From an archaeon (GTDB lineage: Archaea > Thermoproteota > Thermoprotei_A > Marsarchaeales > Marsarchaeaceae), in contig JAKAWJ010000001.1 in NCBI GenBank assembly GCA_021817005.1, positions 1 through 64,000 on the forward strand: a stretch of 64,000 nucleotides of DNA, written 5' to 3'. The translations under genes were made by a program, and so were the position numbers. Positions 5-31,250 of the stretch are shown piece after piece. Positions within the stretch are counted from its first letter, which is position 1; every line of letters starts with the position of its first letter. A model generated the notes under the pieces. The model worked only from the letters and a program-made list of their open reading frames with translations. It was not told where the DNA came from and made no database searches.

Positions 5-2980
5 TCATTCCGAGTAACGCAGCGCTTCAGCAGGTAGAATCTTTGAAGCGTTTAGAGCTGGCCATGCGGTTGCTAGGAGTGCAAATGCGTAGGAAATTAC
101 CCCAATTTCAATTATGCTAACGAACGGAACCGAAAAGCCGAGTGAGTGAAAACGTGGAAACGACAATGAAATGCTGTAGACAAGGCTCAACCCCACAAGT
201 ATTCCTATCAGTATCCCAAAAATAGCTATGAAGCTATTCTCAATCAGGAAACTCCACAAGATCATCCTCTTCGTAAAGCCCAGTGCCCTGAGCGTGCCAA
301 TCTCTCGTCTTCGCTCCACTACCGATCTCACCGTAATGATGCTCAGGCCGGCTATCCCAACTATTAGACCAAAACCCACAAAACTTTCAAGTAGTGAAAT
401 CTGGGCGTTTCCTCCCTGAAGGATTTGTGCCAGAATGTCTTGATACACAATGACAGTCATTCCATAGCCAAGAAAATCTCGCTTCAAGCCTATCGAGACC
501 AATTCCGTGTCTTTCTTGTTACTCAGGGAAATCATCGCGAACTGTTGGCCGCTAGCCACCAGATGATCTTGTTCGATCACCTGTGTTGTTGTAAGGAGGG
601 TAGGAGGGCCGGCCCAGCTCATTATCGCAATTTCGGTCACATTTGTCTTGGTTCCATTAGGCAACTGGATCGAAATCAGGTCGCCTGCGTACCTTTGTTC
701 TGACCTGGATACACTATCCTCCAGAGCATTGGTTGCGTACACCACATCACTATGATTCGACTCAACTTGCTCCCACACCTTCTCAGGGTTTGGTTTTCCG
801 TTTGGTAGCAAAAATGGGCTTGTCGCGCTAGTGAGATTGAAACTGTTTTCCGAAAAGAAGCTGTTGGAACCGCTGCTGTTTGCACCCAGATATTCCAGGT
901 ATAAAGCGCTCTCGTTCGGGCGACTCAGATCCTTTGTAAGCGCGTAGGTTCCGTAGAAAACCGTAGTGCGATTGGCTGCGATGTAAGAAGAGACGTTTGG
1001 ATCCGAGACAATTTTCTGATACAAGCCCGGAACTGGAGTCGAAGTAGACGCAATCATTTGGTAGCCTCCAGTGACCGCAGGATACTCTTGAACAGCAATT
1101 CCATTAAACAGTGAGAGCAAGACGCCTATCCCAATTATGACGGCTATTATCAACGCAAACATCAGAAGAATTCCCCCAGTTCTGAACTGCTTGCGCTGCG
1201 GGTAAGAAAGACCCATTTTAAGGGTCGGGGATTTCGAAGCTCCCTTGCCTGCCCTGAGCAGAACCTTCATTATTGAAGAGGTATTGTAGGAGACAAGAGC
1301 CACAGCCGAAGCCACCATAAAGAATAATCCTATGATTGCTGGAAGAAAGTAGTATCCAAGAGGTGGTGTAAACGGCCCCGCAACGGAGAGATAAGGATCT
1401 CCCCAGTAAATCAGCTCGAGAATGGAAGAGATTGAAAATGCGTATCTTTCTCCGATGAATTTTGTGAGAATCAGGCCCAATCCGAATATTGCAATTGCTG
1501 GACCCAGAACGAAGAGCGATGCATTTCGACTTGAATTTCCCTGCGCTAAAGAAATGAGACCAAGGGCAACTATCACAAGTCCCATGAAAAACATGCGCGT
1601 ATGGGTGGATTTGCTCGCTGGAGGCTCAGTTATGTTTCTGATTGCCCTTATGATATTCAGCCTGCTGACTCGCCAGGATGAAACAATGATTGTGAGATAG
1701 GTGATGAGTATGCCTGAAGAGAAGGCAAGAATCAATGTCTCTGGAGTAAATGTAAAATTGTCTATTATCAGAGAAGAAGAGCTCGTTGCCCCAGATACAC
1801 CGATTACGTTTGAACCGAATATGTAGATCATGACGAACGCGATTCCGATACCCGAAACTGCGCCGATGGACGAGGATAGGAGCGAGTAAAAGAATCCTTC
1901 AAACATGAACTGTTTTACCAAGTGATTCCTCTTCATTCCCAGCGCTCGGGCCATGCCCATCTCTTGCTTCCTTTCTTCTGAGAGCATCACAAAGACGTTC
2001 ACTATGAGCACAGTTCCAACTGCAACAGTAAAGCTGCTCACTATCAGAAAAATTTGTGAGGTGGACGTTGCTGCTTTCAACGCGCTAAATACGCTTTCGT
2101 TTTTGTCACCGAATGCGTAAAGCGGGCCGCTGTTCCCTAGCGAATTGCCTAGGGATTCAAGTGTCGCGTTTGCAAGAGCTCCAACTCGATTTGTATACCG
2201 TATTGAATCTTGAACTCCTCCCGTGTTTGTTATCGCGATGAAGTTGATCTTGCCCTTTTCACCGGTGATGCTCTGCGCGACCTGCAAATTTACGACGATA
2301 TGGTCGCTTCCGTATGGAAAGCCTGACCTTGCATGACTGTAATCTATTCCAGTAATTGTAAGAGTGGTTGTGTTTCGACCGTAGAAAACTTCCAGTTTGT
2401 CGCCCACCGAGGCATTGATGTCTCGCGCAGTCTGGTAATTCACAATAGCACCGTTACTACCTGTATCTGGATTGATTGTCTTCCCGTTTCTATCAGTATA
2501 ATTGCCCAATATAGAAGTAGAGTTGGGATAGACTCCGATCAGAATGACCTGCGCTTGCCCGACATCGCTCCTCTTGTCGAAAATGGAAACAGTGCTGATG
2601 ATTTCGGGGGTTACTCCCGCGACGTCTTGATTTCCGAGAATGTGACTTCTCAGGTTGTCGTATACTGAATAGTTGAAAAATTGATATCCTACCTGCGGAT
2701 TGAGATTGTAAACGCCTTCGTCCACAGCCCCATAATTAGAGTATGCCTCGCTTGTCAGGATGTGGGTAGATGTGTCCCCCGCGACGAGTGAACCCGAAAT
2801 CATTGCCGTTCCAATAAGCAGTCCGAGAACAACGAGGATGGTCGTCGTCTTCCTCCGAGTGAAGTTGCGCAAAGCTATGCGGCTCGAGGCGCTGTCTTTT
2901 AGCATCAAGGCTATGGTAAGAATAAGCAGGAACAGCACGGGAGAAAGAATCGGCAGAATGGAAGTGGGAAACGATGTCAT
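5..2980 (-). CDS. FtsX/MacB-type ABC transporter permease
   Basis: Large inner-membrane permease of 991 residues. An N-terminal helix pair is followed by a long extracytoplasmic domain (about residues 70-300) and three helices that form a first FtsX module. Middle helices, a second extracellular segment (about 640-870) and a C-terminal three-helix FtsX module follow. Both modules carry the coupling motif after a helix (ERKQEMGMARALGMKR and ERRREIGTLRALGFTKR), which contacts the ATPase. The duplicated FtsX architecture is typical of MacB/LolCE-like systems that move lipids or peptides, or act on the envelope mechanically; the substrate is unknown. It starts 22 bases after the stop of the ATPase gene, with a GAGG 8 bases before the ATG, so the two form an operon. 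The stop codon lies inside the window, so the gene is complete. Confidence 0.9.
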   Translation of the reverse strand: MTSFPTSILPILSPVLFLLILTIALMLKDSASSRIALRNFTRRKTTTILVVLGLLIGTAMISGSLVAGDTSTHILTSEAYSNYGAVDEGVYNLNPQVGYQFFNYSVYDNLRSHILGNQDVAGVTPEIISTVSIFDKRSDVGQAQVILIGVYPNSTSILGNYTDRNGKTINPDTGSNGAIVNYQTARDINASVGDKLEVFYGRNTTTLTITGIDYSHARSGFPYGSDHIVVNLQVAQSITGEKGKINFIAITNTGGVQDSIRYTNRVGALANATLESLGNSLGNSGPLYAFGDKNESVFSALKAATSTSQIFLIVSSFTVAVGTVLIVNVFVMLSEERKQEMGMARALGMKRNHLVKQFMFEGFFYSLLSSSIGAVSGIGIAFVMIYIFGSNVIGVSGATSSSSLIIDNFTFTPETLILAFSSGILITYLTIIVSSWRVSRLNIIRAIRNITEPPASKSTHTRMFFMGLVIVALGLISLAQGNSSRNASLFVLGPAIAIFGLGLILTKFIGERYAFSISSILELIYWGDPYLSVAGPFTPPLGYYFLPAIIGLFFMVASAVALVSYNTSSIMKVLLRAGKGASKSPTLKMGLSYPQRKQFRTGGILLMFALIIAVIIGIGVLLSLFNGIAVQEYPAVTGGYQMIASTSTPVPGLYQKIVSDPNVSSYIAANRTTVFYGTYALTKDLSRPNESALYLEYLGANSSGSNSFFSENSFNLTSATSPFLLPNGKPNPEKVWEQVESNHSDVVYATNALEDSVSRSEQRYAGDLISIQLPNGTKTNVTEIAIMSWAGPPTLLTTTQVIEQDHLVASGQQFAMISLSNKKDTELVSIGLKRDFLGYGMTVIVYQDILAQILQGGNAQISLLESFVGFGLIVGIAGLSIITVRSVVERRREIGTLRALGFTKRMILWSFLIENSFIAIFGILIGILVGLSLVYSISLSFPRFHSLGFSVPFVSIIEIGVISYAFALLATAWPALNASKILPAEALRYSE

Positions 2981-3002
2981 GCTGAAGCCTCAGGCATTTG
3001 AT

Positions 3003-3779
3003 TCACTCATTGGAATTATCTTCATCTAACTCTGTGGAACTAGAGAGGGAGGGAGGGGAAGAAGTGTCCTTAGTTCTTACGATCTGTCCATTGCGCATCA
3101 CGACTATCCTATCTGTCTGACTCGCAACGGCTTGGTCATGAGTTACGACAATAAGAGTCAAACCAACTTCTCTGTTGAGTTTGCGCAGCAGGCTGATTAT
3201 TTCAAGAGAGTTCTCGGAATCCAAATTACCCGTGGGCTCGTCCGCCCAGATAATGGAAGGACTGTTTGCAAGAGACCTGGCTATTGCCACTCTTTGCTGC
3301 TGTCCGCCAGAAAGCTCTGAAGGCCTGTGGTCCTTCCATTCCTCCAATCCGACAAGAGAAAGAGCCTCTATCGCTTTTCTCCGGGCTAGCTTTTCATCAA
3401 CGTGGGAAATGATCAGCGGAAGTTCAACGTTCTCCAGTGCGCTCAGAACAGGAAGTAGGTTATAGGATTGAAATATGAATCCCATCTTTTTCGCTCGAAA
3501 CTCTGATTTCCTGTTGTCAGACATTTTGTGAACGTCTACACCGTCAATGATCACTTTTCCTCCAGTAAGGTCGTCAAGACCAGACAAGCAGTTGAGAAGT
3601 GTCGTCTTACCGCATCCTGATGGACCCATTATCGCAATCATTTCGGACGTCCTGACTTCGAGATTTATTCCGCGCAAGGCTTCGACTTTGATAGCTCCCG
3701 AAGAGTAAATCTTGCTCACGTTTTGTGCTTTCACCATCGCGGAATCCTTTGGACCGGAATCTTCAGCCAAGCAGTTCAC
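3003..3779 (-). CDS. MacB/LolD-type ABC transporter ATP-binding protein
   Basis: Cytoplasmic ATPase partner of the FtsX permease downstream. Walker A is GPSGCGKTT, the signature is LSGGQQQRVAIARSL, Walker B is IIWADEPTGNLDS, and an H-loop lies in VVTHD. The TGNLDS form of the D-loop and the ~220-residue core are typical of the LolD/MacB/FtsE subfamily. The GTG at 3779 gives 258 residues. A start at residue 15 (MVKAQNVSKIY, position 3737) fits the family N-terminus better, so the exact start is open. A weak TATA-like stretch lies near 3832. Confidence 0.92.
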   Translation of the reverse strand: MNCLAEDSGPKDSAMVKAQNVSKIYSSGAIKVEALRGINLEVRTSEMIAIMGPSGCGKTTLLNCLSGLDDLTGGKVIIDGVDVHKMSDNRKSEFRAKKMGFIFQSYNLLPVLSALENVELPLIISHVDEKLARRKAIEALSLVGLEEWKDHRPSELSGGQQQRVAIARSLANSPSIIWADEPTGNLDSENSLEIISLLRKLNREVGLTLIVVTHDQAVASQTDRIVVMRNGQIVRTKDTSSPPSLSSSTELDEDNSNE

Positions 3780-4690: not shown

Positions 4691-6337
4691 CTAGGCTGCG
4701 AATACGCCTTCTTCTACAACATATTTTTTGCGTGCCAAATCCATCAGGTTCCTCGTGAACACTACACCGTAGATTGCGACAATCACTGCGAATATTATAG
4801 AGACGTAGGCTGCCGCAGCTATCTGCCCGTTAGCCATGTTGGCGGAGATATAATACATCATTCCGAACGGAACCTGAAGACCATTTGGGGCGACAGTAGG
4901 GGCTATGTTTGGCCAAAATTCTCCTATCGCTATCCCTGCCCACGCACTGTTTATCGTGCTGGAAAGACCCGTTATGATGTAAGGTAACGTGGAAGGGAAG
5001 ATTACACGCCTCATTCTTGTTGAGAAAGGTAACTCATGGTTTCTTGCGAGCTCATTGAATTCAGAAGGTATGGCCTGAACCCCAATCCAGAAGTCAAAGA
5101 AAACGTAGTAAAAGCAACTCAAGAAACCAAGGATAAATATGTATACTTCAGAGTAAATGAAAGGAAGTGTGTGTTCCAAGAACGGCAATGTAAAGATGAA
5201 TATGAGCGGGAAGTAAGCTGGTGCTGGGAACGCGGCGAATACCTGGATCAGAGGAAGGATGGTGTCCCCCGCGCGGCGGTGCGTTGCGAGCAGGTAACCG
5301 ACAGATACAGCGAAAGCAAGTGAGGCCAAGGTGATCAGAGTTACTCGCAGGTAGTCAGCCCCCACGTACTCAAGAAGTCTGGGTGTTTCCTGAAGGAAGG
5401 AGTACCATGTCGACACCGGCACGGAAATGACTATTCGGAGCGACGAGTACAATACGTAAGCGAAAAGGAGAAACAGGATAGCGTACATCACATACTTGGC
5501 GATTCCGTTATGACTTCGGTTTTCCTGCACAAGGTTGCCGGTTTTTGACCTAGCCGCCAACCTTGGGACGTTCCTCATTTGAGCCCTGAACGCCCGCCAC
5601 GGATATGCAATCCTCCCCCGCCACCTACCTGCGTACCTCTTTATGGCGTCTGAAGTATCAACTCCATACTTCGCTACCGCCCACCTGCTGAGCCTGGAAA
5701 GGGCGAAAGTGACGACCGCCACTGCGATGGCTATTGAGGCAAGGGAATAGTATACACCTACAAAGTTTCCGCTGCTGAGGTACTCTGTTATCAGCGTCCC
5801 GATGCCGAATGTCGAACACGTTCCCCTCGGACAAACACTTGCCGTGGCTGCTCCAGCTGTGAACACTTCGCTAACCGAAATGTAGAAAAACGCATCTGCG
5901 AAGCTTGAAAAAATATTGGAAGTTAGGCGCGGTATGGAATGTGGGATATAGAGCTCTTTTAATCTCTTGAAAAATCCAAAACCATAGTTGTCAGACACTT
6001 CGATAAGGTGCTCTGGTACTGTCTTGAACGCTTGGTAGGTGCCAATCCAGATGTTCCAGGCGACGGCGTCGAACACAAGAAAGTCCACAGCCAGCTCCAC
6101 ACCAAAACGCGCTGGCAGGGCTAGGACGAAGATGACAAGGACAAAAGGGAGGAAGCCTATTACCGGTATGGATTCGAGGACGTTCACGAGAGGTATGTAA
6201 ACACTCTCGAAACTCCTGCTTTTTATCGAGGCATAGGCAAGCAACCAGCCGGTGATTATGGACAGCCCTATGAGACCAAATATCCTCCCCAACGTGGCAA
6301 GGGTCGCGAAGGGGATAGCGAGGTCCATAAGACACAC
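4691..6337 (-). CDS. Double-length NitT/SsuC-type ABC transporter permease
   Basis: 548-residue inner-membrane protein made of two fused BPD_transp_1 (binding-protein-dependent permease) halves, about residues 1-235 and 290-540. Each half contains an EAA-like cytoplasmic loop (around VPEHLIEVSDNYG and IPSEFNELARNHE). The halves are joined by a basic linker. Fused two-domain permeases of this type occur in archaeal systems related to nitrate, sulfonate and taurine importers. The stop of the ATPase gene upstream is one base before the GTG used here (an ATG follows at 6328), so the two genes are one transcription unit. No periplasmic binding protein gene is present nearby, so the substrate cannot be inferred. 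Confidence 0.88.
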   Translation of the reverse strand: MCLMDLAIPFATLATLGRIFGLIGLSIITGWLLAYASIKSRSFESVYIPLVNVLESIPVIGFLPFVLVIFVLALPARFGVELAVDFLVFDAVAWNIWIGTYQAFKTVPEHLIEVSDNYGFGFFKRLKELYIPHSIPRLTSNIFSSFADAFFYISVSEVFTAGAATASVCPRGTCSTFGIGTLITEYLSSGNFVGVYYSLASIAIAVAVVTFALSRLSRWAVAKYGVDTSDAIKRYAGRWRGRIAYPWRAFRAQMRNVPRLAARSKTGNLVQENRSHNGIAKYVMYAILFLLFAYVLYSSLRIVISVPVSTWYSFLQETPRLLEYVGADYLRVTLITLASLAFAVSVGYLLATHRRAGDTILPLIQVFAAFPAPAYFPLIFIFTLPFLEHTLPFIYSEVYIFILGFLSCFYYVFFDFWIGVQAIPSEFNELARNHELPFSTRMRRVIFPSTLPYIITGLSSTINSAWAGIAIGEFWPNIAPTVAPNGLQVPFGMMYYISANMANGQIAAAAYVSIIFAVIVAIYGVVFTRNLMDLARKKYVVEEGVFAA

Positions 6338-18924: not shown

Positions 18925-19059
18925 TCATCGAGACCCCAATTTGGAAAGTGTTGCAACAGCTTTTCCCCTACTTGCAAGTACATCCATCAGTTCCGCGAGT
19001 TTCCAAGCATTTTCGCCCTTAACCAGAACACCTATCTCGTAGTTGGAATACATGCCGCC
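18925..19059 (-). pseudogene. drmC: 3' part of drmC beyond an in-frame TAG
   Basis: After the amber codon at 19060-19062 the drmC frame stays open for 44 codons (GGMYSNYEIGVLVKGENAW onward) to a TGA. This is the expected PLD C-terminus (NxELGVLVxG pattern), so the TAG interrupts an otherwise intact gene. Confidence 0.7.
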
Positions 19060-19434
19060 CTAGGAAAAATTCGCTGACCCAACAAATGCCTTAAGTCTGT
19101 CAGAAACAACAACTTTGGCATGAAGTTGCTTTCTTTTCTCATCTAGGTCGAGAACTTGGACTGATGGCGAGTGCGATGATAGTTTGGTCAACTTCTTCTG
19201 CATGACGGGATTCTGGTTCCGAAAAGAGTTGACTACAATCGTCACCTTCACCCTCCTTTCAGCAGCCGCAGAAAGTAATTCCAGTATCTGTACGGCGCTC
19301 GGGGTAAGCAGATATGCGAGCATCTGAATTTCCCTATATGCACCTGAAATCAACTCCTCGATTACCGGTTCAATCCCTCTGACTCCTTGCCTGACCAGCT
19401 CAGGGCCAGTTGCCAAAATTTCGGAGTCGGTCAT
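19060..19434 (-). CDS. drmC: DrmC-like phospholipase D-family protein of DISARM, cut by TAG
   Basis: PLD-fold protein with the catalytic motif HAKVVVSD (H-x-K-x4-D) followed by VGSANFS. The preceding segment (EPVIEELISGAYREIQML) is the usual first helix of such nuclease or phosphodiesterase domains. It starts at an ATG overlapping the drmB TGA by four bases, the last gene of the operon. Translation stops at TAG immediately after GSANFS, leaving 124 residues instead of about 169; the missing part is intact downstream. In known DISARM systems DrmC is the dispensable PLD component. Either it is inactivated here, or the codon is read through, or the sequence has an error. Confidence 0.78.
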   Translation of the reverse strand: MTDSEILATGPELVRQGVRGIEPVIEELISGAYREIQMLAYLLTPSAVQILELLSAAAERRVKVTIVVNSFRNQNPVMQKKLTKLSSHSPSVQVLDLDEKRKQLHAKVVVSDRLKAFVGSANFS

Positions 19435-21263
19435 CTCAGGTTCTCTAGGAGCACAGTCCTGTCAAGCCACATATTTCGGTGTTCGCATGATGTTTCAGGG
19501 AGCAGCAGACAGCCATAACATGCGGCCCCGTTATAGTATCCCGCTTTAAATGCATGGTTCTTGCAGAGCGGGTCTCCTGAACATGACCCCGCATTTTGCA
19601 TTGCTCTTTCAAGGAATTTTGAGAACTGGGGAACAAGAGCGATTAGACCACCCAGCGAGCCTTCGCTCCCGGGCTGAGTCGCATAGAGAAGCACCCCTCC
19701 TCTGGTTCTGTTTCCCTGTTTCTCAAGATAGACTCTTTCCCTGATAGAGGCAGAGGAATACCCTGCGTCTACTGCGATCGCGCGTAGTAGAAGATGACTC
19801 AGTGTATGCCACCACACGAATGCAGGACTGAGCTCGGTCCTGTGCCGGCTGTCTCTGAATACATGTACGTCATCATATTTAGATGGTTGATCTGCGGCAC
19901 TTGACCAACGTTCTGATGATTCTCCGCATGGGGCGTCTTGCCATCCGTCAACTGGGTCACGTGTGACAAAGATTCCTTCACCCATGAACTGCACACCGGG
20001 GTACCATTTAGTTTTGTTCGAATCCGCAAATGACACGTCGACTATCTTGGCGAGTACTTCCGTATCGCCCTCTCTCCTGTACTCAGTGTCGACCTCTCTC
20101 CGGTACCCCTTCTGAACGGTTACAGTGCTCAGCTTTGAAACCGGCGCAATCCTAAAACACAGCTGGTCCACGGAGACTGACCTGACTGCAGGTAGCTTGA
20201 TTTCAATCAGGAAGGGGGAACTCTTGTTAGGACCACTTAAGGACGGAATACCATTCAGCGAACCGTCCCTGAGCGCATTGAACTCTTCCAGTATAAGGTC
20301 CTCATAGGTGTTCAACACAGGGGTGCTCACGTCTTTTATGGCTGCTATGATTTCATTCCAACTGTACCTGAGGATGTCGTAAGCGTGGTCTTGTCCGATT
20401 AAGCGTAATTGAACTAACTTATTCAGAGACCCTTCCAGCGCACTCCTGTCCGTTGGAGGGTACCATTGCAGGAACTTTAAAACCGGTTCAAGTTCAAGCA
20501 GAGCATGGAGTTCAGTGCAACGGGGTGGAATCGCGAAGAGAGTAACCAGTTCAGGCACTCTGAGATTGGAGGCTTGTCTCTGAATAATCCTAGCAGTTTT
20601 TATGTTGCACTTCTCGCAATGTTGGGCACTCTTGTTTGATGGAGCTTCCCGTTCAGGCATCCTGCCAGTACAGGGCCAGCTCCAGTTCCTTGAGAATGCC
20701 GCACCCATCGTTCCACTACCTCCGCAACTTGGACACTCCACCCGGACTGATGACAGAGCTTGTCCGCCTCCCCGCCAAATGTACCAGTTACTGCTACTGC
20801 AGGACTGTTTGCTTCTTGTGTGAGTTAATCTGTACCAGTCGACCTCGTCCATGTGTCCCTCTGGACAGGCTAGTATAAAGCGGATGGCTTCCTCTCGCTT
20901 ACTGCCAAGCATTCCGCACTGCGGACAGTTTAGTCCGGCGTGCAGAATGGAGTAATTTCCTTTGTGGCCAGAGGAGTTCAGGCAAAGTCTCCAGTTAGGA
21001 AAGGGATTGGTCCGGTAGATAAATTCACCATCTGGCTTCTCCAGTTCCGCATTGGAGGGTAGCCTGAAAATTCTCGAATTGTTCAGAAGTCCTGCAGACA
21101 TTCTCTGATTGGAAATTTCGTAATCTGAGGGCTGCAGAGATGAATTCCTGTCAAACAGTCCTAAGTCGGGGCTGAGAATTACTCTTGGGCCATTCGGCCC
21201 TTCAAGGATCGCGCCCGGCCCGTAAGTTACGATATACTGAGAAGGTCTGACCTGCTGAGTGAT
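19431..21263 (-). CDS. drmB: DrmB, DUF1998 zinc-binding protein of DISARM
   Basis: Partner of the DrmA helicase. The conserved N-terminus RPSQYIVTYGPGAI is present. Cys clusters follow (CPQCG, CPSCGGSG, CEKC), and the C-terminal DUF1998 signature is GAACYGCLLLPETSCEHRN. The first ATG (21101) lies 50 residues inside the protein. The frame runs upstream, without ATG, GTG or TTG, straight into the TAG of drmA, which is in the same frame. The coordinates given here assume initiation at an ATC (21263) purely as a placeholder. It overlaps drmC by four bases. Confidence 0.87.
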   Translation of the reverse strand: MTQQVRPSQYIVTYGPGAILEGPNGPRVILSPDLGLFDRNSSLQPSDYEISNQRMSAGLLNNSRIFRLPSNAELEKPDGEFIYRTNPFPNWRLCLNSSGHKGNYSILHAGLNCPQCGMLGSKREEAIRFILACPEGHMDEVDWYRLTHTRSKQSCSSSNWYIWRGGGQALSSVRVECPSCGGSGTMGAAFSRNWSWPCTGRMPEREAPSNKSAQHCEKCNIKTARIIQRQASNLRVPELVTLFAIPPRCTELHALLELEPVLKFLQWYPPTDRSALEGSLNKLVQLRLIGQDHAYDILRYSWNEIIAAIKDVSTPVLNTYEDLILEEFNALRDGSLNGIPSLSGPNKSSPFLIEIKLPAVRSVSVDQLCFRIAPVSKLSTVTVQKGYRREVDTEYRREGDTEVLAKIVDVSFADSNKTKWYPGVQFMGEGIFVTRDPVDGWQDAPCGESSERWSSAADQPSKYDDVHVFRDSRHRTELSPAFVWWHTLSHLLLRAIAVDAGYSSASIRERVYLEKQGNRTRGGVLLYATQPGSEGSLGGLIALVPQFSKFLERAMQNAGSCSGDPLCKNHAFKAGYYNGAACYGCLLLPETSCEHRNMWLDRTVLLENLR

Positions 21264-21272
21264 ACGGCTCGC

Positions 21273-24200
21273 CTACGTTTGAAAACCTGTGGTCTCTTCA
21301 ATGTCGCGAAGCGAGGTAGGAGAGTTTCTGAAAACCACGCCAATACTGGGACTGCGAGCGTGCTGATGCTGCGGATCACCGAGGACCACTGATTTTGCGG
21401 GTGGACCCTTTATCGCATATTCCGTGTACACCAGATTTTGGAAGTTTTTGGCGACCGAATGCCAGGTGTCGAGTGCCCCCTTTGCATACCCAGAAACATA
21501 AAATGCGGAAGGCCGGTGAGCCGAGGGCTGAGCATTCGCGCGCACTTCCAGCAAAACTGGAATCTCGATCGTCTCACCTGTCGTCCTGTTAGAACTCATC
21601 TCTTGAGCCTTATCGTCACGGTCCCACGGGACTTCAGTATCTGTCATGTTCCTGAGCAGCGACACAATAACCGGGCCCATCGCGCGGTCAAGTACACCGG
21701 GGGCGAATGGATAGACTGTCACGGGTTCAACATATCGATGCAGTTGCCTGTGATATCCCATAAAGTACTCGTAATGGCTCAGGTCTCGCGGCCTGCCTGC
21801 CCGGTAGAAGGTCACAACTACTGCTCCGTTTCTTCTGCCCACTCTTCCGGTGGCCTGAATGTACGAGGATGTCGTCTTGGGCTGACCGTTCACAACCATC
21901 AGTCCTATCCGAGAAATATCAACACCTGTGCCGAACATGGATGTGGTAAACAGAGCGTCAGGGGCGTCTGGATAAGCGGTCCCCAAAAGCCCCAGCACAG
22001 AAGGCAGGTCGGTTGACGAGGTTCTGCTGGAGAGTTCAACAGCCCTGTCATCCGGTATGTCCCGAGACGAAGAGAGTGCCTCCAGCCTTTGGGGGATGTC
22101 CTGCCTGTAAAGGGCTCTCGCACCGGCCAGTTCTCTTACGGCATTGAAATAGCCAGTCAGAGTCCAGAAGTTATCTATATCTGAATCTGAATTGCTTCGC
22201 AGGTCTCCGACTGTCTTAAGGAGCCGGGCCCATATTCTGACCAGAGGCGTGAGTGCTCCCCACCTAGGAGCGCAAACTCCTACGTATAATCTTCCTGCTC
22301 CCCTGTCGTCTAAAGGGTGGCCTTCTTTTTCGGATACAAAAAATCTCTCTCCGAAAGCTGGACCGTAGGGAGGGAAGATTTGGAGCTTTCTCACAAACAG
22401 GCATTTGACTTGGTCAGCTGCGTTCTTTACGGTAGCAGAAGACGCAATATACTTCGGCCGGTGCTGGCTGAATTGAGAGGACAGATAATCGATGGCTGTT
22501 TCATAGATACCTGTAAGACTTCCCAGCGGTCCCTCAATCAAATGGAGTTCATCTTGCAGAACGAGCTCTGGTGGTCTCAGGCGGGGGATGTCGGCAAACA
22601 ATCGTTTACTCTGCCACCCAGAAGGGCTGGGGTGCTGGCCATTGGACCCTCGATGCTGGTAATCCCTGTAATAGCCGTAAATCACATGATGGTGCTGGAC
22701 ATTCCCGAAGAAGGAAGCTACTCTTGGCTCGTACGGTAATCGGGCAAACTTGTCGACTGTAGCTGTAATGACTGGTGGTAATCTCTCGTATATCTGATCG
22801 TCGACCGTGCAGGCTGGAATAGGGATTCTATCGCTGAAAAATTCACTTCCTTTACGGAAGGGTTCCTGCACATGCACGTAATATCCTTTCTGATTCTCCT
22901 GCAGACCCGTTTGTCTCTCTCTCGGAGCGTAACTGCTTAAGACTCCGCCCGTGAACCATCCCATGGGGAGCTTCGCGCACCACTCCTCGTGAAGCGGACA
23001 ATCTGGATTGGGGCAGAATATCTCGAAGTCGTATTCCTTTCTTTCGTTGTTCCTGTTCACATAATACCTTATGAAGTAACCCATCCTTGACGCCCTAGCC
23101 GCGCACAAGACCTGTTTACTGTCAATGCTTAGCCCAGCGGCCCGAAGCTTGCCGCAAATGTCGTTCCAGAATCCATCGACCATCTTCGGAAGGATTCGCG
23201 CTTGGCTCTTTATTTTTAGCGTTAAGGTGGCGTAATCCGGATTGGCGTTGGCAGTAAGGTTGAAATTCAGTAACTTCACATTTCTATACGACTGCCCGCA
23301 CAATGAACGCACCTTGGCCTCCAGTTCTGGAGCAGAATCGAAGTTTATTATTAGATGCAGAGTTTGCACCCCAGCAGGTAGCCCCATTTCTGGGACTGCC
23401 AGCACCCCACCACATGCGGGACAGTCGAGTACCTGTGCCGGATCCCCACGTCCCTCCCTCCCTCTTAGAATGGAAATCGCGCCGGGTATGTATACAGAGT
23501 TATTACTACCGCTGGACGACGCTTGTCGAGACCAGTCCTCCAGTTTATTTGGGCTTACGTCCTGGCCAACCCAGAGCCCTGCCAAGAAGGGAGATGCTCC
23601 CCAGATAAAATTATCGTTCCTCTTGCACCCTTTGGGCCTCCACCCTAAGGCATGTCGTTGGGAGAGCCCCTGAACGCGCAAATATTCGCACGCGGTGATA
23701 AGTGCCAGCAGCCTTCTGAACTGCTGGATAGTGAGTAATCTGAGGGTATACCGGGTGATCGCAGCAACTCCTGCGCCCGTAGTGTCTACGTTCTCAGATT
23801 CTGAGCGCTTCGCCGCGACAAGTCTGCGATAGGCCAAGGCAAACGCCACAACAGCCAGATATGCTTCTGTCTTTCCAGCTCCGGTAGGAACCCAAAGCAG
23901 GTCGCAGACCTCTCTGAATTCTGAATCTGTATTGAGCACGGACTCAATTGTCAACAGTATAAACGCAAGCTGAAAGGGGCGCCACTTGAAGCCTTTCTTT
24001 GATTTCCACATCGCTTGCTGTTCCATGGCACGATTGGCGAAACAAAAAGAGAGCCTTGCATCTTCGTTACTGCACAGCAAATTCAGTCCCTTCCGCATTC
24101 GCTCAAGAGCGACTTTACAGTCATTCACAATTCTAGTGGTGATATTCGCCATGGTATTCGGTAGGCCATCAGAACTCGAGGGAGATCGCTGGAGCCCTGA

Positions 24201-25283
24201 GATCCACTTGGAATAACCGGTTAGTAGCGGTTTTAATGCCTCCATCAGCTCACCGGGATCCCAGCACTCAGCAAGACTCGCGCAGTTCAATTCTGGCTCT
24301 GGTCCAGAGCTCAAATCCCACTCGAGTCGAGGAGCAGGCGTCCAGTAGACAGGGATAAACTCTGTCCGCACGTCGGGTGCAGAAAAGCGATGAGCAGTCT
24401 CTCGGTCCAGCAACTGAGAGTCGACCCAGTGGGAAAGCTCATTCATGTTTGGAGACCCGTCTTGTCCATTTTTTGGCAGACTCCTTTCCGGGTCTACGTC
24501 CTTCCATACCGCTGAGCATAGATGTCCTCTGGCGAGGACTGGCCGTTTGGAATAAAGGAGTGTCAGGATTTCTTCGTCTTCCGCATCGCCTCTGTCCGGT
24601 GAATGAGCCTCGTCGCTAGCTGAAATGACCCGGCAATTATCGGAACACAAAATTCGAACTTGGGGCTGGAAAATAAAAGATTTCGAGCGGCTCTTCTGCT
24701 CATTTTGAGAAGGCAATTCATTGACCAGATAAAGGCTAACATAATACTGATTTACTCCTGACTGTTGGCAAGTGTAGTGCAGAGAGACTTCTCCCTGTCC
24801 TTTCTGGGACTTGTTTCCGTTGCCGTCAAACCAGATTGGGTAGGTAAGCCCTTCCGCTATCTTGACGACTGCGCTCTTGGGCTTTCTTTTCCAGACCGTT
24901 TCGCCATTCTCCGTCTCCTGAGAGTATGTTGCCCATGTCAGGCATACTTCCAAAGACGGTGAGCCCGAACTCTGAACTGTGAATGAGATTCCCATGGTTG
25001 GTGGCCGCGCCTTTGGGTGCAGAGCTGGGTAAAACAGAGGCGGTGCACTTACTTCTGGTGGCTCATACTGATTGTCGTCAGCCGCCGTGGCTGCAGCTAC
25101 TTCTTGGAGCGGAATCTCTTCAGCCTCACCTATCTCGGAAGTGTCCTCTGCGAAGCGCTCTGCTACAGGACCTAGCACACCGGTGATGTACTCATTTCCG
25201 GGGTCTTCATGCATTGATTCATGTAGCCCTCCACGCGGTCCAAGCAGCTCTTTAGCAAGCTCCGCGACTAGCTCATTCCTCAT
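21273..25283 (-). CDS. drmA: DrmA, DISARM superfamily 2 helicase
   Basis: 1336 residues from the ATG at 25283 (MRNELVAELAKELLGPRGG, the usual DrmA opening ahead of a YITGVLGP segment). The helicase core contains Walker A in LLWVPTGAGKTEAYL, the motif II box DELH in LVLQDELHLIEGPLG, motif III in YIASSATV and motif VI in QATGRVGRRNG. A Cys-containing insert (CPACGG, and CPNPDC about 180 residues later) sits between the two RecA lobes. The C-terminus (NSPTSLRDIEE) matches the family end. The frame continues to an ATG at 25403 in a less convincing extension. It is the motor of the DISARM complex, acting on invading DNA together with DrmB. Confidence 0.9.
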   Translation of the reverse strand: MRNELVAELAKELLGPRGGLHESMHEDPGNEYITGVLGPVAERFAEDTSEIGEAEEIPLQEVAAATAADDNQYEPPEVSAPPLFYPALHPKARPPTMGISFTVQSSGSPSLEVCLTWATYSQETENGETVWKRKPKSAVVKIAEGLTYPIWFDGNGNKSQKGQGEVSLHYTCQQSGVNQYYVSLYLVNELPSQNEQKSRSKSFIFQPQVRILCSDNCRVISASDEAHSPDRGDAEDEEILTLLYSKRPVLARGHLCSAVWKDVDPERSLPKNGQDGSPNMNELSHWVDSQLLDRETAHRFSAPDVRTEFIPVYWTPAPRLEWDLSSGPEPELNCASLAECWDPGELMEALKPLLTGYSKWISGLQRSPSSSDGLPNTMANITTRIVNDCKVALERMRKGLNLLCSNEDARLSFCFANRAMEQQAMWKSKKGFKWRPFQLAFILLTIESVLNTDSEFREVCDLLWVPTGAGKTEAYLAVVAFALAYRRLVAAKRSESENVDTTGAGVAAITRYTLRLLTIQQFRRLLALITACEYLRVQGLSQRHALGWRPKGCKRNDNFIWGASPFLAGLWVGQDVSPNKLEDWSRQASSSGSNNSVYIPGAISILRGREGRGDPAQVLDCPACGGVLAVPEMGLPAGVQTLHLIINFDSAPELEAKVRSLCGQSYRNVKLLNFNLTANANPDYATLTLKIKSQARILPKMVDGFWNDICGKLRAAGLSIDSKQVLCAARASRMGYFIRYYVNRNNERKEYDFEIFCPNPDCPLHEEWCAKLPMGWFTGGVLSSYAPRERQTGLQENQKGYYVHVQEPFRKGSEFFSDRIPIPACTVDDQIYERLPPVITATVDKFARLPYEPRVASFFGNVQHHHVIYGYYRDYQHRGSNGQHPSPSGWQSKRLFADIPRLRPPELVLQDELHLIEGPLGSLTGIYETAIDYLSSQFSQHRPKYIASSATVKNAADQVKCLFVRKLQIFPPYGPAFGERFFVSEKEGHPLDDRGAGRLYVGVCAPRWGALTPLVRIWARLLKTVGDLRSNSDSDIDNFWTLTGYFNAVRELAGARALYRQDIPQRLEALSSSRDIPDDRAVELSSRTSSTDLPSVLGLLGTAYPDAPDALFTTSMFGTGVDISRIGLMVVNGQPKTTSSYIQATGRVGRRNGAVVVTFYRAGRPRDLSHYEYFMGYHRQLHRYVEPVTVYPFAPGVLDRAMGPVIVSLLRNMTDTEVPWDRDDKAQEMSSNRTTGETIEIPVLLEVRANAQPSAHRPSAFYVSGYAKGALDTWHSVAKNFQNLVYTEYAIKGPPAKSVVLGDPQHQHARSPSIGVVFRNSPTSLRDIEETTGFQT

Positions 25284-25576
25284 CAAGCCTTCATATCGCC
25301 TCTTGCATGCCGGTACAGGACTCTGACCCTTGGGGGATCTTTCCCAGCTGATAATCTTCTTACCGGTGAACTGTAAAGGATGGTGGGTGATATTGCTGGC
25401 CATAATTGGCTCTCGTTCCTCAATGTGTGTCTGCTAGATTCTTTCGGCTGGCAGTGAGTACGTCCCGAACTATTGGCATCACCTCCGGGCTCGGCGGTGT
25501 GTGCTGAACTCGTCAGGTGGGTCAGATTACACAGTCCAGAATGCACGTTCAAACGGCTCATGCGATTCAGGCTCAT
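25284..25576 (-). other. Leader region of drmA with an overlapping 97-codon frame
   Basis: A frame from ATG 25576 ends in TGA exactly at the drmA TTG/ATG start (TTGATGA arrangement), downstream of a good TATA box at 25633-25640. Its composition is not protein-like, so I treat it as a leader rather than a gene, but coupling of this frame to drmA cannot be excluded. Confidence 0.25.
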
Positions 25577-25632
25577 AGTTCACGCCTCTCAGAGCTGGGC
25601 CTGAGGGACAGGAGCACTCCATTCAGCTGACT

Positions 25633-25640
25633 ATTTATAT
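25633..25640 (-). promoter_or_regulatory. TATA box ahead of drmA
   Basis: ATATAAAT on the minus strand, inside the region after the glycosylase gene. It predicts a start near 25610 and so a long leader for drmAB(C), separate from the methyltransferase promoter. Confidence 0.6.
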
Positions 25641-25655
25641 TTTCCTTATGCTGCG

Positions 25656-26336
25656 CTAGCGCCTCCGCAATTCGCTCCTGTGCGACAGACCGTATCTGCA
25701 ATAGTTTGCGATAGGACACACTTGGCATTTGGGATTTCTGGGCACGCAAACAAGGGCGGCTAGGTCTATCATCGCGTAACCGAAATTTGCGGGTTGTTCT
25801 CTGTCCATCAGGCGGGCTCCAAGAGACCTGAAGCGATGACTCCTCCTCGAGCTGTCGGTGATTTTTTCGCTGAATATGCGCCCCAGCACCCGGACCGTGT
25901 TCGTATCAAGAAGTACCTCAGGGAAACCGAAAGCAAAACAGCGGATGGCCGAGGAGATGTAGCTGCCTATCCCGGGCAGCAACTGCAGCTCATTTTTCTC
26001 TTCAGGTAGTTGTCCGTCATACTGGTCCACTATTTGCCGTGCGGCGTTCACCAGCATTCGCGAGCGCCAGAACAGGCCCAGAGGACGGAGCATACTTACA
26101 AGCTCTTCCTGATCTGAGTCTGCCAGTATGCGAAATGACGGATATTGTGTAATAAACTTCTCATAGACGGGCTGGACCTGCGCTGCGCGCGTGCGATGCA
26201 GGAGAGCTTCCGATATGAACACTCTGTAAGGAGTCCGTCTCGCTCTCCAAGGATAATTTCGACCCGATACTTTCCACCACCCAAGCAGTGCTCTTGATAA
26301 TCCGTCAGTATCGAGCCATGAACCCGACTGAATCAC
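25656..26336 (-). CDS. HhH-GPD DNA glycosylase, mismatch (T/G)-type
   Basis: 226-residue base-excision repair enzyme of the EndoIII/MutY family. The helix-hairpin-helix is LPGIGSYISSAI, the catalytic Asp is in LLDTNTVRVLG, and the iron-sulfur cluster loop is C-x6-C-x2-C-x5-C (CVPRNPKCQVCPIANYC). Endonuclease III has Lys at the catalytic position after LPGxG; here it is Tyr, as in the thermophilic T/G mismatch glycosylase Mig. The ATG overlaps the methyltransferase stop by four bases. The likely role is removal of thymine (or uracil) produced by deamination of the 5-methylcytosine made by its neighbour. It could be an ordinary MutY, but the Tyr and the context favour Mig. Confidence 0.85.
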   Translation of the reverse strand: MIQSGSWLDTDGLSRALLGWWKVSGRNYPWRARRTPYRVFISEALLHRTRAAQVQPVYEKFITQYPSFRILADSDQEELVSMLRPLGLFWRSRMLVNAARQIVDQYDGQLPEEKNELQLLPGIGSYISSAIRCFAFGFPEVLLDTNTVRVLGRIFSEKITDSSRRSHRFRSLGARLMDREQPANFGYAMIDLAALVCVPRNPKCQVCPIANYCRYGLSHRSELRRR

Positions 26337-27277
26337 GGCTGGAGAACCTCCTTTATTGCTTCAGCGAGCTTCCGGGAAAAGACCGGACTTACCGAGTCCG
26401 CAATCATCTGGTATTTCGCCGCCAGTCCTGCTCTTTCAGGAAACCTGAGGCCCTCGCTGAACCCCATTATAAGGAACGCCTCCCTGACCGAAATCACACG
26501 GTCCTTCTCTTTGAGATTACAATTCTTTCTTTTTGGTTGCAGCGAGTCGGGATGAAGTATGTATGTTTTCATGATGTTTCCAAAAGAAGGCGCCGGCTCG
26601 CCCCACTTCAGTTTATACCAGCCATACTTCCCCGAGTTGTAGAGTGGCAGATATTTCTCTATAGTATTGAGTCTGGGCCACTCATGATAGGATTTCTGCC
26701 CCCTCTCCGTGTTTCGAAGGTCCCAGATCTTGGACTTCACGGTCGATTCAGGCGACCTGCGCTTATCAAGTGCTTCCTTTACTCGACTGCTCTGGTCATT
26801 CAGCACTCCGACCGCAAAAAACCGTTGCCTGCGAGTAGCCGCTCCGAACTCACTGTACTTGATGTTGGTCTTCAGAATGGAATAGCCGGCCCGCTCGGCT
26901 TTTCTGCTCCAGTATTCGAACGTGCCGGAATGTCCGGCGGGCGGAACGTTTTCGAACACGAAAGCTAGGGGTCGGGGTCTCAATGCGAGAACGTGTTTGA
27001 AGTATACCCCCAGCAATCTGTAGTCAAGATGTCTTTTCTCTCGTTTAATCGTGTTGACAGATGACCAGGGTCTACATGGGGGACCTCCTATCAAAATCTC
27101 ATAATTTCCCGTCATATTCTCCATAAGTAAATCTTTCTGAACGAACCTGCCAAAGCCATTCAGTTCGAAAGTTTGGCCAGCCAGTTCTGATCTGTCAACG
27201 CCAGTAACTTGAAATCCAGCTGCTTTGAATCCGCTCGCGAGACCTCCCATACCGGAGAACAGGTCAAGCACTTTCAC
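26333..27277 (-). CDS. drmMII: DNA (cytosine-5) methyltransferase, DrmMII-like
   Basis: 314-residue m5C methyltransferase. Motif I is LDLFSGMGGLASGF, motif IV is GGPPCRPWS with the catalytic Cys, motif VI is FENVP, motif VIII is ATRRQRFFAVG and motif X is ADSVSPVFSRKLAEAI. It starts with GTG. It heads the operon, with the glycosylase overlapping its 3' end. As in class 2 DISARM, it would mark host DNA and so distinguish self from invader. The recognition sequence cannot be told from the sequence; the target-recognition region is short (about residues 170-240). Confidence 0.9.
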   Translation of the reverse strand: MKVLDLFSGMGGLASGFKAAGFQVTGVDRSELAGQTFELNGFGRFVQKDLLMENMTGNYEILIGGPPCRPWSSVNTIKREKRHLDYRLLGVYFKHVLALRPRPLAFVFENVPPAGHSGTFEYWSRKAERAGYSILKTNIKYSEFGAATRRQRFFAVGVLNDQSSRVKEALDKRRSPESTVKSKIWDLRNTERGQKSYHEWPRLNTIEKYLPLYNSGKYGWYKLKWGEPAPSFGNIMKTYILHPDSLQPKRKNCNLKEKDRVISVREAFLIMGFSEGLRFPERAGLAAKYQMIADSVSPVFSRKLAEAIKEVLQP

Positions 27278-27374
27278 AGCGCGTTTTTACACTCCCCCTT
27301 CGCTCCGCCTCACCAGCACCCCTTCATCTCCAGTGGGTCAGAGACCTTCGGGCACCCAAGTGTTCTTGAATGGT

Positions 27375-27382
27375 TTATATAA
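27375..27382. promoter_or_regulatory. Symmetric TATA box ahead of the DISARM operon
   Basis: TTATATAA reads the same on both strands. On the minus strand it predicts a start near 27352, with a ~75-base leader before the methyltransferase GTG. On the plus strand it would fire into a degenerate region with no sound gene. Confidence 0.6.
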
Positions 27383-29631: not shown

Positions 29632-29946
29632 CTACTTAAAAATTTTGGCAACCAGAACTGCAATATAGCCGAAGCATGATAATCCTACCAGAAAAAGAAA
29701 CGTCAATCCGAGCGCTGGAATTTCTCCGCCTGGCCAAATCACTCCATAATAGTCAGAAATAAAAAGAAGAACCAGCGAAACAGAAGTTACCAGTATAAAG
29801 TCAAATGTGGCTATTAAAATGATAGGACGAAGTTCCTTGCTTAAATAGATTCTTTCACTGGCCAATCCGTGAATTACAGACATTAACACGAAGAACAGTG
29901 TGCCCGGGATTACTGCACCCAAAAACATGGTATCATAGAAGGTCAT
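29632..29946 (-). CDS. Small three- to four-helix membrane protein paired with a PLD-like protein
   Basis: 104 residues with helices near 8-28, 44-65 and 78-102, and a short charged loop (ASERIYLSKELR). Its ATG lies 14 bases inside the end of the upstream PLD-like gene, so both come from one transcript and are probably functionally linked. No family was recognised. Confidence 0.75.
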   Translation of the reverse strand: MTFYDTMFLGAVIPGTLFFVLMSVIHGLASERIYLSKELRPIILIATFDFILVTSVSLVLLFISDYYGVIWPGGEIPALGLTFLFLVGLSCFGYIAVLVAKIFK

Positions 29947-30748
29947 TGAGGTGGCCCTCGTCTAACTCTTCGACCAGAACGAGCTTAAGGTCATTGTCAC
30001 TAATTCGTCGTTGGAAGGATTGTCTGGCAAACTGGTCTGCGCCATGCGGCGCAACCAAAATGCCACATCTAATGTGCCTGTTATAATGTCTTTCAGTTGT
30101 CACCTTCAGGATATATTCTTCCGCTAGACTTTGATTGACAGCAGATTCCGCAATATCTGTTAGGACTATGTCTCTGTCTTTCGTTGCTACGAAGTTGAAA
30201 CGATTTCCCATCATCCTCAATTTACCATTTTCCAGAACTTCGTAATGGCGTTCATGTAGTATCCTTCTCAAAAATTCAGTTTGATAGGTGGAAGCAGGGC
30301 TTGGCTCCTTTTCCCGCCTCTCTCCTTTTTCCCACATTTCCTCAAACCTTCTGTAGAATTGCATTACCACAGGTTCTTCACTGAAACCCACAGCAACATA
30401 TTCTCGATTTACGTGTGGATAGCCCAGGGTTGTGTCTGAAGGGATTCCCATAAGCACGTAAGAACGGTCGAAAATAAGCACTCTAATATCTCCATGATCA
30501 TAAAAACGAACAGGACAGCCGAGTTTTTCGAATTCTTCTGTATATTCGTTAGCTGTTTGCAGTTTCACACTCAACACCCTTACGACCACTCCCTTCGACC
30601 TTGCTATTCGTATCGCATCAGCGAACTCCTTTTCTTGCGAAATCCAGGCAATATGACGGCCCATTAGGAGCGCATCACTTTTGCACTGCTGGAGCATCTC
30701 TGATGTCTTTTTGACAAAATCTCTTCTAGAGGTAAATATCTCGCACAT
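29933..30748 (-). CDS. PLD-fold protein with uncharacterised C-terminal domain
   Basis: 271 residues from the ATG at 30748 (MCEIFTSRRDF); the frame extends to 30850 but the promoter favours the shorter start. Residues ~1-150 match the single-HKD PLD-like fold seen in TrmB C-terminal domains: KSDALLMGRHIAWI, then GVVVRVLSVKLQT, then FYDHGDIRVLIFDRSYVLMG, where H-x-K is reduced to HGD. Residues ~165-271 contain FVATKDRDIVLTDIAES and HIRCGILVAPHGAD, which loosely resemble a restriction-endonuclease-like core. It overlaps a small membrane protein gene. A defence or membrane-associated effector role is inference from context. Confidence 0.72.
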   Translation of the reverse strand: MCEIFTSRRDFVKKTSEMLQQCKSDALLMGRHIAWISQEKEFADAIRIARSKGVVVRVLSVKLQTANEYTEEFEKLGCPVRFYDHGDIRVLIFDRSYVLMGIPSDTTLGYPHVNREYVAVGFSEEPVVMQFYRRFEEMWEKGERREKEPSPASTYQTEFLRRILHERHYEVLENGKLRMMGNRFNFVATKDRDIVLTDIAESAVNQSLAEEYILKVTTERHYNRHIRCGILVAPHGADQFARQSFQRRISDNDLKLVLVEELDEGHLNDLL

Positions 30749-30761
30749 TGCCCCCGACCCG

Positions 30762-30776
30762 CCTGAAAAGTTCAGG
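30762..30776. promoter_or_regulatory. Palindrome at the predicted start site (operator candidate)
   Basis: CCTGAA-AAG-TTCAGG is a perfect 6-base inverted repeat. The start site predicted from the TATA box at 30792-30799 (about 30769) falls in its centre, so a bound repressor would block transcription of the PLD-like pair. Confidence 0.5.
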
Positions 30777-30791
30777 GCTGTAGCGTGCCTA

Positions 30792-30799
30792 ATAATTTT
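30792..30799 (-). promoter_or_regulatory. TATA box of the PLD-like/membrane pair
   Basis: AAAATTAT on the minus strand, about 21 bases from the palindrome centre and 47 from the ATG. The interval 30800-31250 otherwise holds only a doubtful 116-codon minus-strand frame (30860-31210) that I do not accept as a gene. Confidence 0.5.
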
Positions 30800-31250
30800 T
30801 TCGCTTCTGTATTGATGACTAGGATAAGCCCTGTTTGCGGTCGATAGCACGAGAAGAAGTTAGGCCTTTGCCCTCAGCCGTGCAGCCCGCCCTTCACGGA
30901 AGCTATCACAGCTTTTGAGCGGGTTAAAATCTTCTGACCCAAGCAAGAGCGGCACATTCATACAGGCAGGTTCAGTTTCCGCAATCAAAGACGGTTGGTG
31001 AGTTTGTGGTATTGCTCTATATCCACGAAATATAATCCCTTTAGTCAAGACTTGATCAATGGGATCAATTGTGAACAGCGCATGGCATATAACATCTATC
31101 GCCAAGACAGATTCTGAGGAGGGTCCACAGAACAACCCGAGGAAGGCTCTTCGCCACACGCTCCCCGCAAGCTCCCACCCTCGCAGCAAGTGCATGATGA
31201 AGTTCATCATTCAAATTTTAAGAACGCTAACACCCGCTACAATCCTCGAA

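What the first reader, a model, noticed from the sequence alone, without database searches (positions are those of the whole stretch)
18925..27382. Class 2-like DISARM defence operon in an archaeal genome
Minus-strand operon of five genes: m5C methyltransferase, HhH-GPD glycosylase, DrmA helicase with Walker A GAGKT and DELH, DrmB with the DUF1998 cysteine signature, and PLD-family DrmC with HAKVVVSD. drmA, drmB, drmC and an m5C methyltransferase define class 2 DISARM. No drmE is seen; a DNA glycosylase stands in the operon instead. The seen motifs are direct; the function is by family knowledge.
Basis: partly seen in the sequence, partly recalled or inferred. Interest (0 to 1): 0.85.

Follow-up and report, generated by a model that had tools for sequence, protein, structure and literature searches.

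The report
Archaeal DISARM operon with mismatch-repair glycosylase
An archaeal virus-defence operon of the known DISARM type carries, between its DNA methylase and its core genes, a DNA-repair glycosylase that recurs in the same place in archaea, Chloroflexota and an Aquificota-type bacterium and probably mends the mutations that the methylase causes; in this genome two of the defence genes look damaged.

Summary
The five genes are there, and profile searches place four as DISARM: DrmA, DrmB, DrmC and the m5C methyltransferase DrmMII. No drmE model matches anywhere in the assembly, so the strict PADLOC definition of class 2 is not met. The glycosylase is not a stand-in for drmE. The order methyltransferase–glycosylase–drmA–drmB–drmC recurs in 13 further loci from Thermoproteota, Bathyarchaeota, Methanosarcina and its phylum, Chloroflexota and Hydrogenothermus. 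In the sampled trees all 14 glycosylases form one clade, and they occur only within one DrmA clade. They have a MutY/Mig fold and carry the Mig.MthI (T:G glycosylase) residue pattern rather than the MutY pattern. The methyltransferases beside them are divergent, but all are C5-cytosine enzymes. In other DISARM loci a Vsr gene sits by the methyltransferase instead. Best reading: a DISARM subtype with a built-in repair enzyme for deaminated 5-methylcytosine. TAG is an ordinary stop here, so the restriction arm of this copy may be decaying, or these may be assembly errors. I found no published description of this subtype in the papers I could search.

The parts
26333..27277 (-). drmMII: C5-cytosine DNA methyltransferase, 314 aa, GTG start
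   Evidence: PADLOC DrmMII PDLC02655 4e-94, 1-313 of 1-320/323; Pfam PF00145 1e-32; motifs GGPPCRPWS, ENV, RRQRFF
25656..26336 (-). HhH-GPD DNA glycosylase, 226 aa, predicted monofunctional T:G (Mig-type) mismatch glycosylase with 4Fe-4S motif; frame overlaps the methyltransferase stop
   Evidence: PF00730 and PF10576; PADLOC PDLC03398 2e-37; Mig residues R47/A50/Y126/D144, Tyr rather than Gln at 187; AlphaFold pLDDT 91.8, MutY/Mig fold
25631..25643 (-). TATA-like stretch AAAATATAAATAG just after the glycosylase stop; possible own promoter for drmABC
   Evidence: read directly from sequence; function inferred
21273..25283 (-). drmA: YprA-family helicase, long form (1336 aa from the homologous start)
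   Evidence: PADLOC PDLC02571 1526 bits; NCBIfam DISARM_DrmAL 1504 bits; start by alignment
19431..21263 (-). drmB: OB-fold/zinc-binding partner of DrmA; homologous start position is ATC (21261-21263), same frame as drmA across its TAG stop
   Evidence: PADLOC PDLC02583 646 bits over 4-605/606; NCBIfam DrmB_fam 454 bits; start comparison
18925..19434 (-). drmC: short single-HKD PLD nuclease, interrupted by TAG; start ATG overlaps drmB stop (ATGA)
   Evidence: PADLOC DrmC PDLC02614 149 bits when the TAG is read through; Pfam PLDc_2 1e-17
19060..19062 (-). in-frame TAG in drmC, just after the HKD motif; Trp in the four nearest relatives

Best explanation
This is a DISARM system of a distinct, widely spread subtype: m5C methyltransferase, mismatch glycosylase, DrmA, DrmB, DrmC. 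The methyltransferase marks the host's own DNA with 5-methylcytosine. DrmA with DrmB recognises and acts on foreign DNA with unmodified ends, and DrmC or another nuclease may degrade it (known DISARM model, not tested here). 5-Methylcytosine deaminates to thymine and leaves T:G mismatches; the glycosylase removes the mispaired thymine so that base-excision repair can restore the C. The glycosylase is therefore the repair companion of the methyltransferase, as Mig is on plasmid pFV1 and as Vsr is beside other m5C methyltransferases. In this genome the modification and repair genes are intact, while drmB (no usual start codon) and drmC (premature TAG) look damaged, so the restricting half may be weak or lost. 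Shown: gene families, order, conservation, clades, residue pattern, lesions in the assembly. Inferred: substrate, pairing of functions, decay.
For: DISARM profiles. Same five-gene order in L013, L020, L021, L022, L024, L025, L031, L097 (in L022 the contig start cuts the methyltransferase) and in L161, L163, L164, L167, L169, picked by DrmB score alone. All 9 carriers in the DrmA tree lie in one 18-row clade (SH-aLRT 100); none of the 68 other rows carries it, nor do any of 11 lower-scoring DrmB loci, L170-L180. The 14 glycosylases are one clade (98/99; all 200 bootstrap trees) apart from MutY, Mig and Nth references. Residues: 14/14 have R47 and Y126 and none has the MutY Gln at 187, whereas all 4 MutY references have Q at 47, V at 50 and Q at 187; the weight of V45/Q182 in MutY against A50/L187 in Mig is from PMC2714593. 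The protein has no room for MutY's C-terminal domain. Upstream methyltransferases are divergent, but all 8 tested with Pfam here, and the window's own, are PF00145. Plasmid relatives also sit by m5C methyltransferases: pFV1 mig, Caldicellulosiruptor, Thermus, two haloarchaea. In 13 other DISARM loci a Vsr abuts the methyltransferase and none of these has the glycosylase.
Against: No enzymatic data. The predicted fold matches MutY and Mig equally (TM about 0.87), and by sequence alone MutY structures score above Mig (159 against 135 bits). Residue 187 is Tyr here, not Leu as in Mig; A50 is Val in three Chloroflexota carriers and Ser in one other. Several DrmA-clade members have an m5C methyltransferase but neither glycosylase nor a Vsr close by (for example L023, L028, L162), so repair is not obligatory.
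Confidence: 0.78

Rival explanations
1. The glycosylase is part of the immune mechanism: it excises a base in foreign DNA, and the abasic site or nick gives DrmAB a place to load, in the manner of base-excision restriction.
For: It is tied to one DrmA clade across two domains while the methyltransferase next to it is swapped. Glycosylases acting as restriction enzymes exist in another fold (R.PabI; PMC10273834).
Against: Mig-type residues and repeated pairing with m5C methyltransferases without DISARM on plasmids; Vsr occupies the corresponding place in other DISARM loci; several members of the same DrmA clade lack it.
Confidence: 0.1
2. The glycosylase is an adenine glycosylase (MutY) that happens to sit in the operon.
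For: Best PDB and NCBIfam matches are MutY; Y126 also occurs in Bacillus-type MutY (PMC2714593).
Against: It misses the NCBIfam mutY cut-off (189 against 286.5 bits); lacks the C-terminal domain; lacks Q at the positions of Mig 47 and 187; forms a clade apart from the MutY references; found in the same operon place in 14 loci.
Confidence: 0.07
3. drmB and drmC are not damaged: TAG is read through (pyrrolysine or a suppressor tRNA), giving a DrmA-DrmB fusion and a full-length DrmC.
For: Both odd sites involve TAG; drmA and drmB share one frame across TAG with conserved sequence on both sides; natural DrmA-DrmB fusion exists in L016, 2194 aa.
Against: TAG ends 14 of 44 main window frames, among them the glycosylase; no PylS match; no CUA tRNA among those ARAGORN could call. 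The assembly is only 84.6% complete and 7 of 39 tRNA candidates were not called.
Confidence: 0.05
4. The two lesions are errors or strain mixture in the assembly and the real operon is intact.
For: Each is a single-base difference in an otherwise well-conserved frame; 44 conserved codons follow the TAG. The genome is fragmented and 84.6% complete, which suggests a metagenome-assembled genome, though its origin was not told.
Against: Two in one operon, whereas the other 20 main window frames tested give long open frames and mostly good domain coverage. No reads to check.
Confidence: 0.35

Closest known systems
DISARM class 2 (drmA, drmB, drmC, drmE, drmMII; Ofir et al. 2018, rule as given for PADLOC in PMC9252829)
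   Same: DrmA, DrmB, DrmC and an m5C methyltransferase in one operon
   Different: No drmE found; a Mig-type glycosylase sits between methyltransferase and drmA; DrmA is the long form (NF038326) of a separate clade; methyltransferase first
Mig.MthI (thymine-DNA glycosylase of plasmid pFV1, PDB 1KEA) beside an NgoPII-type restriction-modification system
   Same: Short HhH-GPD enzyme beside an m5C methyltransferase; Y126, D144, R47, A50
   Different: Partner system is type II restriction-modification, not DISARM; DISARM glycosylases are a separate clade and mostly carry an aromatic residue at 187
Vsr endonuclease beside m5C methyltransferases
   Same: T:G mismatch repair gene paired with an m5C methyltransferase; found by sequence beside the methyltransferase in 13 other DISARM loci here
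   Different: Unrelated fold and chemistry (nicking endonuclease rather than base removal)
YprA-family systems ARMADA, Druantia, Dpd, BRIGADE, TALON (PMC12458937)
   Same: YprA-family helicase at the core
   Different: The window has a separate DrmB gene and DrmC, and matches DISARM models far better than Druantia or Dpd models

Membership tests
DISARM (core) | DrmA helicase | tested here: met
   PDLC02571 1526 bits; NF038326 1504 bits over cut-off 999
DISARM (core) | DrmB as a separate, adjacent gene with C-terminal zinc-binding domain | tested here: met
   PDLC02583 646 bits; NF038324 454 over 240; MZB domain. Start codon abnormal
DISARM (core) | DrmC PLD nuclease | tested here: inconclusive
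   PDLC02614 149 bits on the read-through frame; TAG after codon 124; NCBIfam DrmC_I below its cut-off
DISARM class 2 | DrmMII m5C methyltransferase | tested here: met
   PDLC02655 4e-94; PF00145
DISARM class 2 | DrmE | tested here: not met
   PDLC02635 finds nothing in the assembly nor in 8 genomes with the same operon, while it rings in G420 at 1.6e-151; assembly 84.6% complete
DISARM class 1 | DrmD and DrmMI | tested here: not met
   No such gene in the operon or among the window frames scanned with PADLOC; rest of the genome not searched for these
DISARM | anti-phage activity | not testable with these tools
   needs a culture or heterologous expression
Mig-type T:G glycosylase | catalytic Asp144, Tyr126, no Lys at 126, R47, A50, non-Gln at 187, no C-terminal MutY domain | tested here: met
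   alignment to pFV1 Mig; residue 187 is Tyr, not Leu
Mig-type T:G glycosylase | thymine removal from T:G | not testable with these tools
   biochemical assay needed
MutY | Gln at the position of Mig 187 and C-terminal 8-oxoG domain | tested here: not met
Pyrrolysine/TAG recoding | pylS and tRNA-Pyl, TAG not a normal stop | tested here: not met
   limited by assembly completeness

The most novel reading that the evidence does not exclude
The operon-borne glycosylase is an active part of DISARM immunity, converting deaminated or modified bases in foreign DNA into abasic sites or ends on which DrmAB loads, so that a glycosylase and a helicase work as one restriction machine.
Probability: 0.1. 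Interest if true: 0.8.

Novelty: new variant of a known kind. Interest (0 to 1): 0.5.

Why it matters
DISARM marks the host genome with 5-methylcytosine, which is a mutation hazard, above all at high temperature. A subtype that carries its own mismatch glycosylase, conserved across archaea and bacteria and kept while the methyltransferase is swapped, suggests that the mutational cost of self-marking shapes which defence systems can be kept. It also gives annotation pipelines a better label for a gene that PADLOC now calls a type II nicking endonuclease, and a testable prediction on C-to-T mutation at methylated sites.

Tried and rejected
TAG as a sense codon: rejected, TAG is an ordinary stop in the window, no PylS, no CUA tRNA called. 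Alternative usual start for drmB upstream or between drmA and the conserved N-terminus: none. drmE elsewhere in the genome: none. First genome-contig scan with DrmA alone: no relatives; repeated with an alignment. Scan of viral contigs with the glycosylase alignment: nothing. DrmA in phage records: one weak partial hit. Structure search to tell MutY from Mig: cannot separate them. The 372-base gap as a repeat: single copy in the genome. Rfam on the window: nothing. A second defence system in the window: none of the 10 further frames scanned matched PADLOC. The original DISARM paper is not held.
Full report
What is in the sequence. The window's minus strand holds, from 27277 down to 18925, an m5C methyltransferase, an HhH-GPD glycosylase, drmA, drmB and drmC. 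PADLOC profiles match four of them strongly as DISARM: DrmMII 314 bits, DrmA 1526, DrmB 646, DrmC 149. NCBIfam agrees for DrmA (long form, above its cut-off) and DrmB. Methyltransferase and glycosylase frames overlap (26333-26336), and drmB and drmC overlap by ATGA (19431-19434), as in one transcription unit. A 372-base gap separates glycosylase and drmA; just after the glycosylase stop it holds AAAATATAAATAG, a plausible archaeal TATA box, so drmABC may have its own promoter (function inferred). The genome has a full archaeal 16S rRNA match, in a 1.93 Mb assembly of 56 contigs, 84.6% complete.

drmC, as given in the finding, is not open: TAG at 19060-19062 follows GSANFS and ends the frame at 124 codons, and 44 further codons (NYEIGVLVKG...) continue the homology. 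In the four nearest relatives this codon is Trp. drmB has no ATG, GTG or TTG between drmA's TAG stop and codon 21101, which lies beyond the conserved N-terminus. Where the nearest relative L013 has ATG, the window has ATC. All 24 relatives compared have an ATG, GTG or TTG close to the conserved motif; in 19 the script located it, and in the other five (L024, L025, L027, L029, L162, whose motif reads ISRSQ) the frame printed begins with M or VNM. drmA and drmB lie in the same frame, so read-through of one TAG would fuse them, and a natural fusion exists in L016. But TAG ends 14 of 44 main window frames, including the glycosylase, no PylS is found, and no CUA tRNA is called. I take the lesions as real damage or assembly error, not recoding; reads would decide.

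Not class 2 by the strict rule. PADLOC's class 2 requires DrmE (PMC9252829). The DrmE model finds nothing in this assembly and nothing in eight genomes with the same five-gene order, while it scores 1.6e-151 in G420. So the window is a DISARM system with DrmMII but without DrmE.

The glycosylase is a fixed member of a DISARM subtype. L013, from another family of the same phylum, has all five genes in the same order and overlapping or nearly so. A scan of named genomes with a DrmA alignment, followed by gene calling, found the same order in two Chloroflexota/Anaerolineae loci, two Methanosarcina, a Hydrogenothermus and a Bathyarchaeota; a third Anaerolineae locus, L022, shows it with the methyltransferase cut by the contig start. 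As a check, genomes were drawn from the phyla of a Methanosarcina and an Anaerolineae carrier and loci were picked by DrmB score alone. Of nine high-scoring loci not already held, five carry the glycosylase (L161, L163, L164, L167, L169), two do not (L162, L168) and two are cut by contig ends; of 11 lower-scoring loci none does. In a DrmA tree of 86 rows all nine carriers fall inside one clade of 18 rows (SH-aLRT 100), and none of the other 68 rows carries it. Within that clade gain and loss have occurred (5-6 changes). The 14 glycosylases form one clade with 98/99 support in a tree with Mig, plasmid relatives, MutY and Nth. That tree has few reference rows, so 'one clade' holds against the references sampled.

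What the glycosylase probably does. Position 126 (Mig numbering) is Tyr, not the Lys of bifunctional EndoIII; Asp144 is present; R47 is present in all 14 and A50 in ten; position 187 is Leu, Phe or Tyr, never the MutY Gln. PMC2714593 names V45 and Q182 of MutY as adenine determinants, with A50 and L187 at these places in Mig.MthI, and describes Mig.MthI as acting on deaminated 5-methylcytosine. The window protein is 226 aa, without the C-terminal MutY domain. The AlphaFold model is confident (pLDDT 91.8), but the fold fits MutY and Mig alike. Context points the same way: plasmid relatives beside m5C methyltransferases include pFV1 mig itself, annotated as thymine/uracil-DNA glycosylase, and genes in Caldicellulosiruptor, Thermus and two haloarchaea. 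The methyltransferases upstream of the DISARM glycosylases are very different from each other, yet all eight tested with Pfam are C5-cytosine enzymes. In 13 other DISARM loci a Vsr gene, the other well-known T:G repair enzyme, abuts the m5C methyltransferase, and none of these has the glycosylase; one of them, L168, belongs by DrmB score to the carrier type but has its methyltransferase downstream.

How it most likely works. From the published DISARM model (PMC9142583), methylation marks self, DrmAB acts on unmodified DNA with 5' single-stranded ends, and DrmC is dispensable and may help degrade. The glycosylase keeps the price of self-marking down. In this genome the modification and repair genes are intact while the restricting genes are the damaged ones, which is the order of loss one would expect, since losing the methyltransferase first would be dangerous and losing the glycosylase first would be mutagenic (inference).

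Novelty. Among papers that hold DISARM together with glycosylase, MutY, Vsr or base-excision terms, those I read do not describe a glycosylase in DISARM; the library is partial and the original DISARM paper is not held. I rate it a new variant of a known kind.

Noticed in passing
window 29933-30850 (-) and 29632-29946 (-): A 305-aa protein with a weak PLD-like N-terminal half and a nuclease-like C-terminal half, followed by a small protein with hydrophobic stretches, lies about 2.4 kb upstream of the DISARM operon; no PADLOC match for the larger one.
   Followed up: partly
L111 (G042:C6) 2749-3396 and 1-420: A second Mig-type glycosylase (Trp at position 187) lies on the same small contig as an m5C methyltransferase fragment, outside DISARM, in a genome that also has a DISARM locus.
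   Followed up: partly
L016 5218-11802: A natural single-frame DrmA-DrmB fusion of 2194 aa, followed by a drmC, in an archaeon of the same phylum.
   Followed up: no
L118 and L119 (haloarchaeal plasmids) 4962-5606: Conserved 'hypothetical protein' near a DNA cytosine methyltransferase and an ATP-binding protein carries the Mig residues; probably an unannotated T:G glycosylase of a restriction or defence module.
   Followed up: partly
L021 7300-8316 and L167 11948-12916: m5C methyltransferases with an unusual motif IV (SPECTSHS instead of GGPPCQ) that still match PF00145 and keep ENV.
   Followed up: partly
window 25656-26336 (-), PADLOC model PDLC03398: PADLOC labels this Mig-type glycosylase family 'Type II nicking endonuclease' (REase_II), which could make pipelines report a restriction system here.
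   Followed up: no
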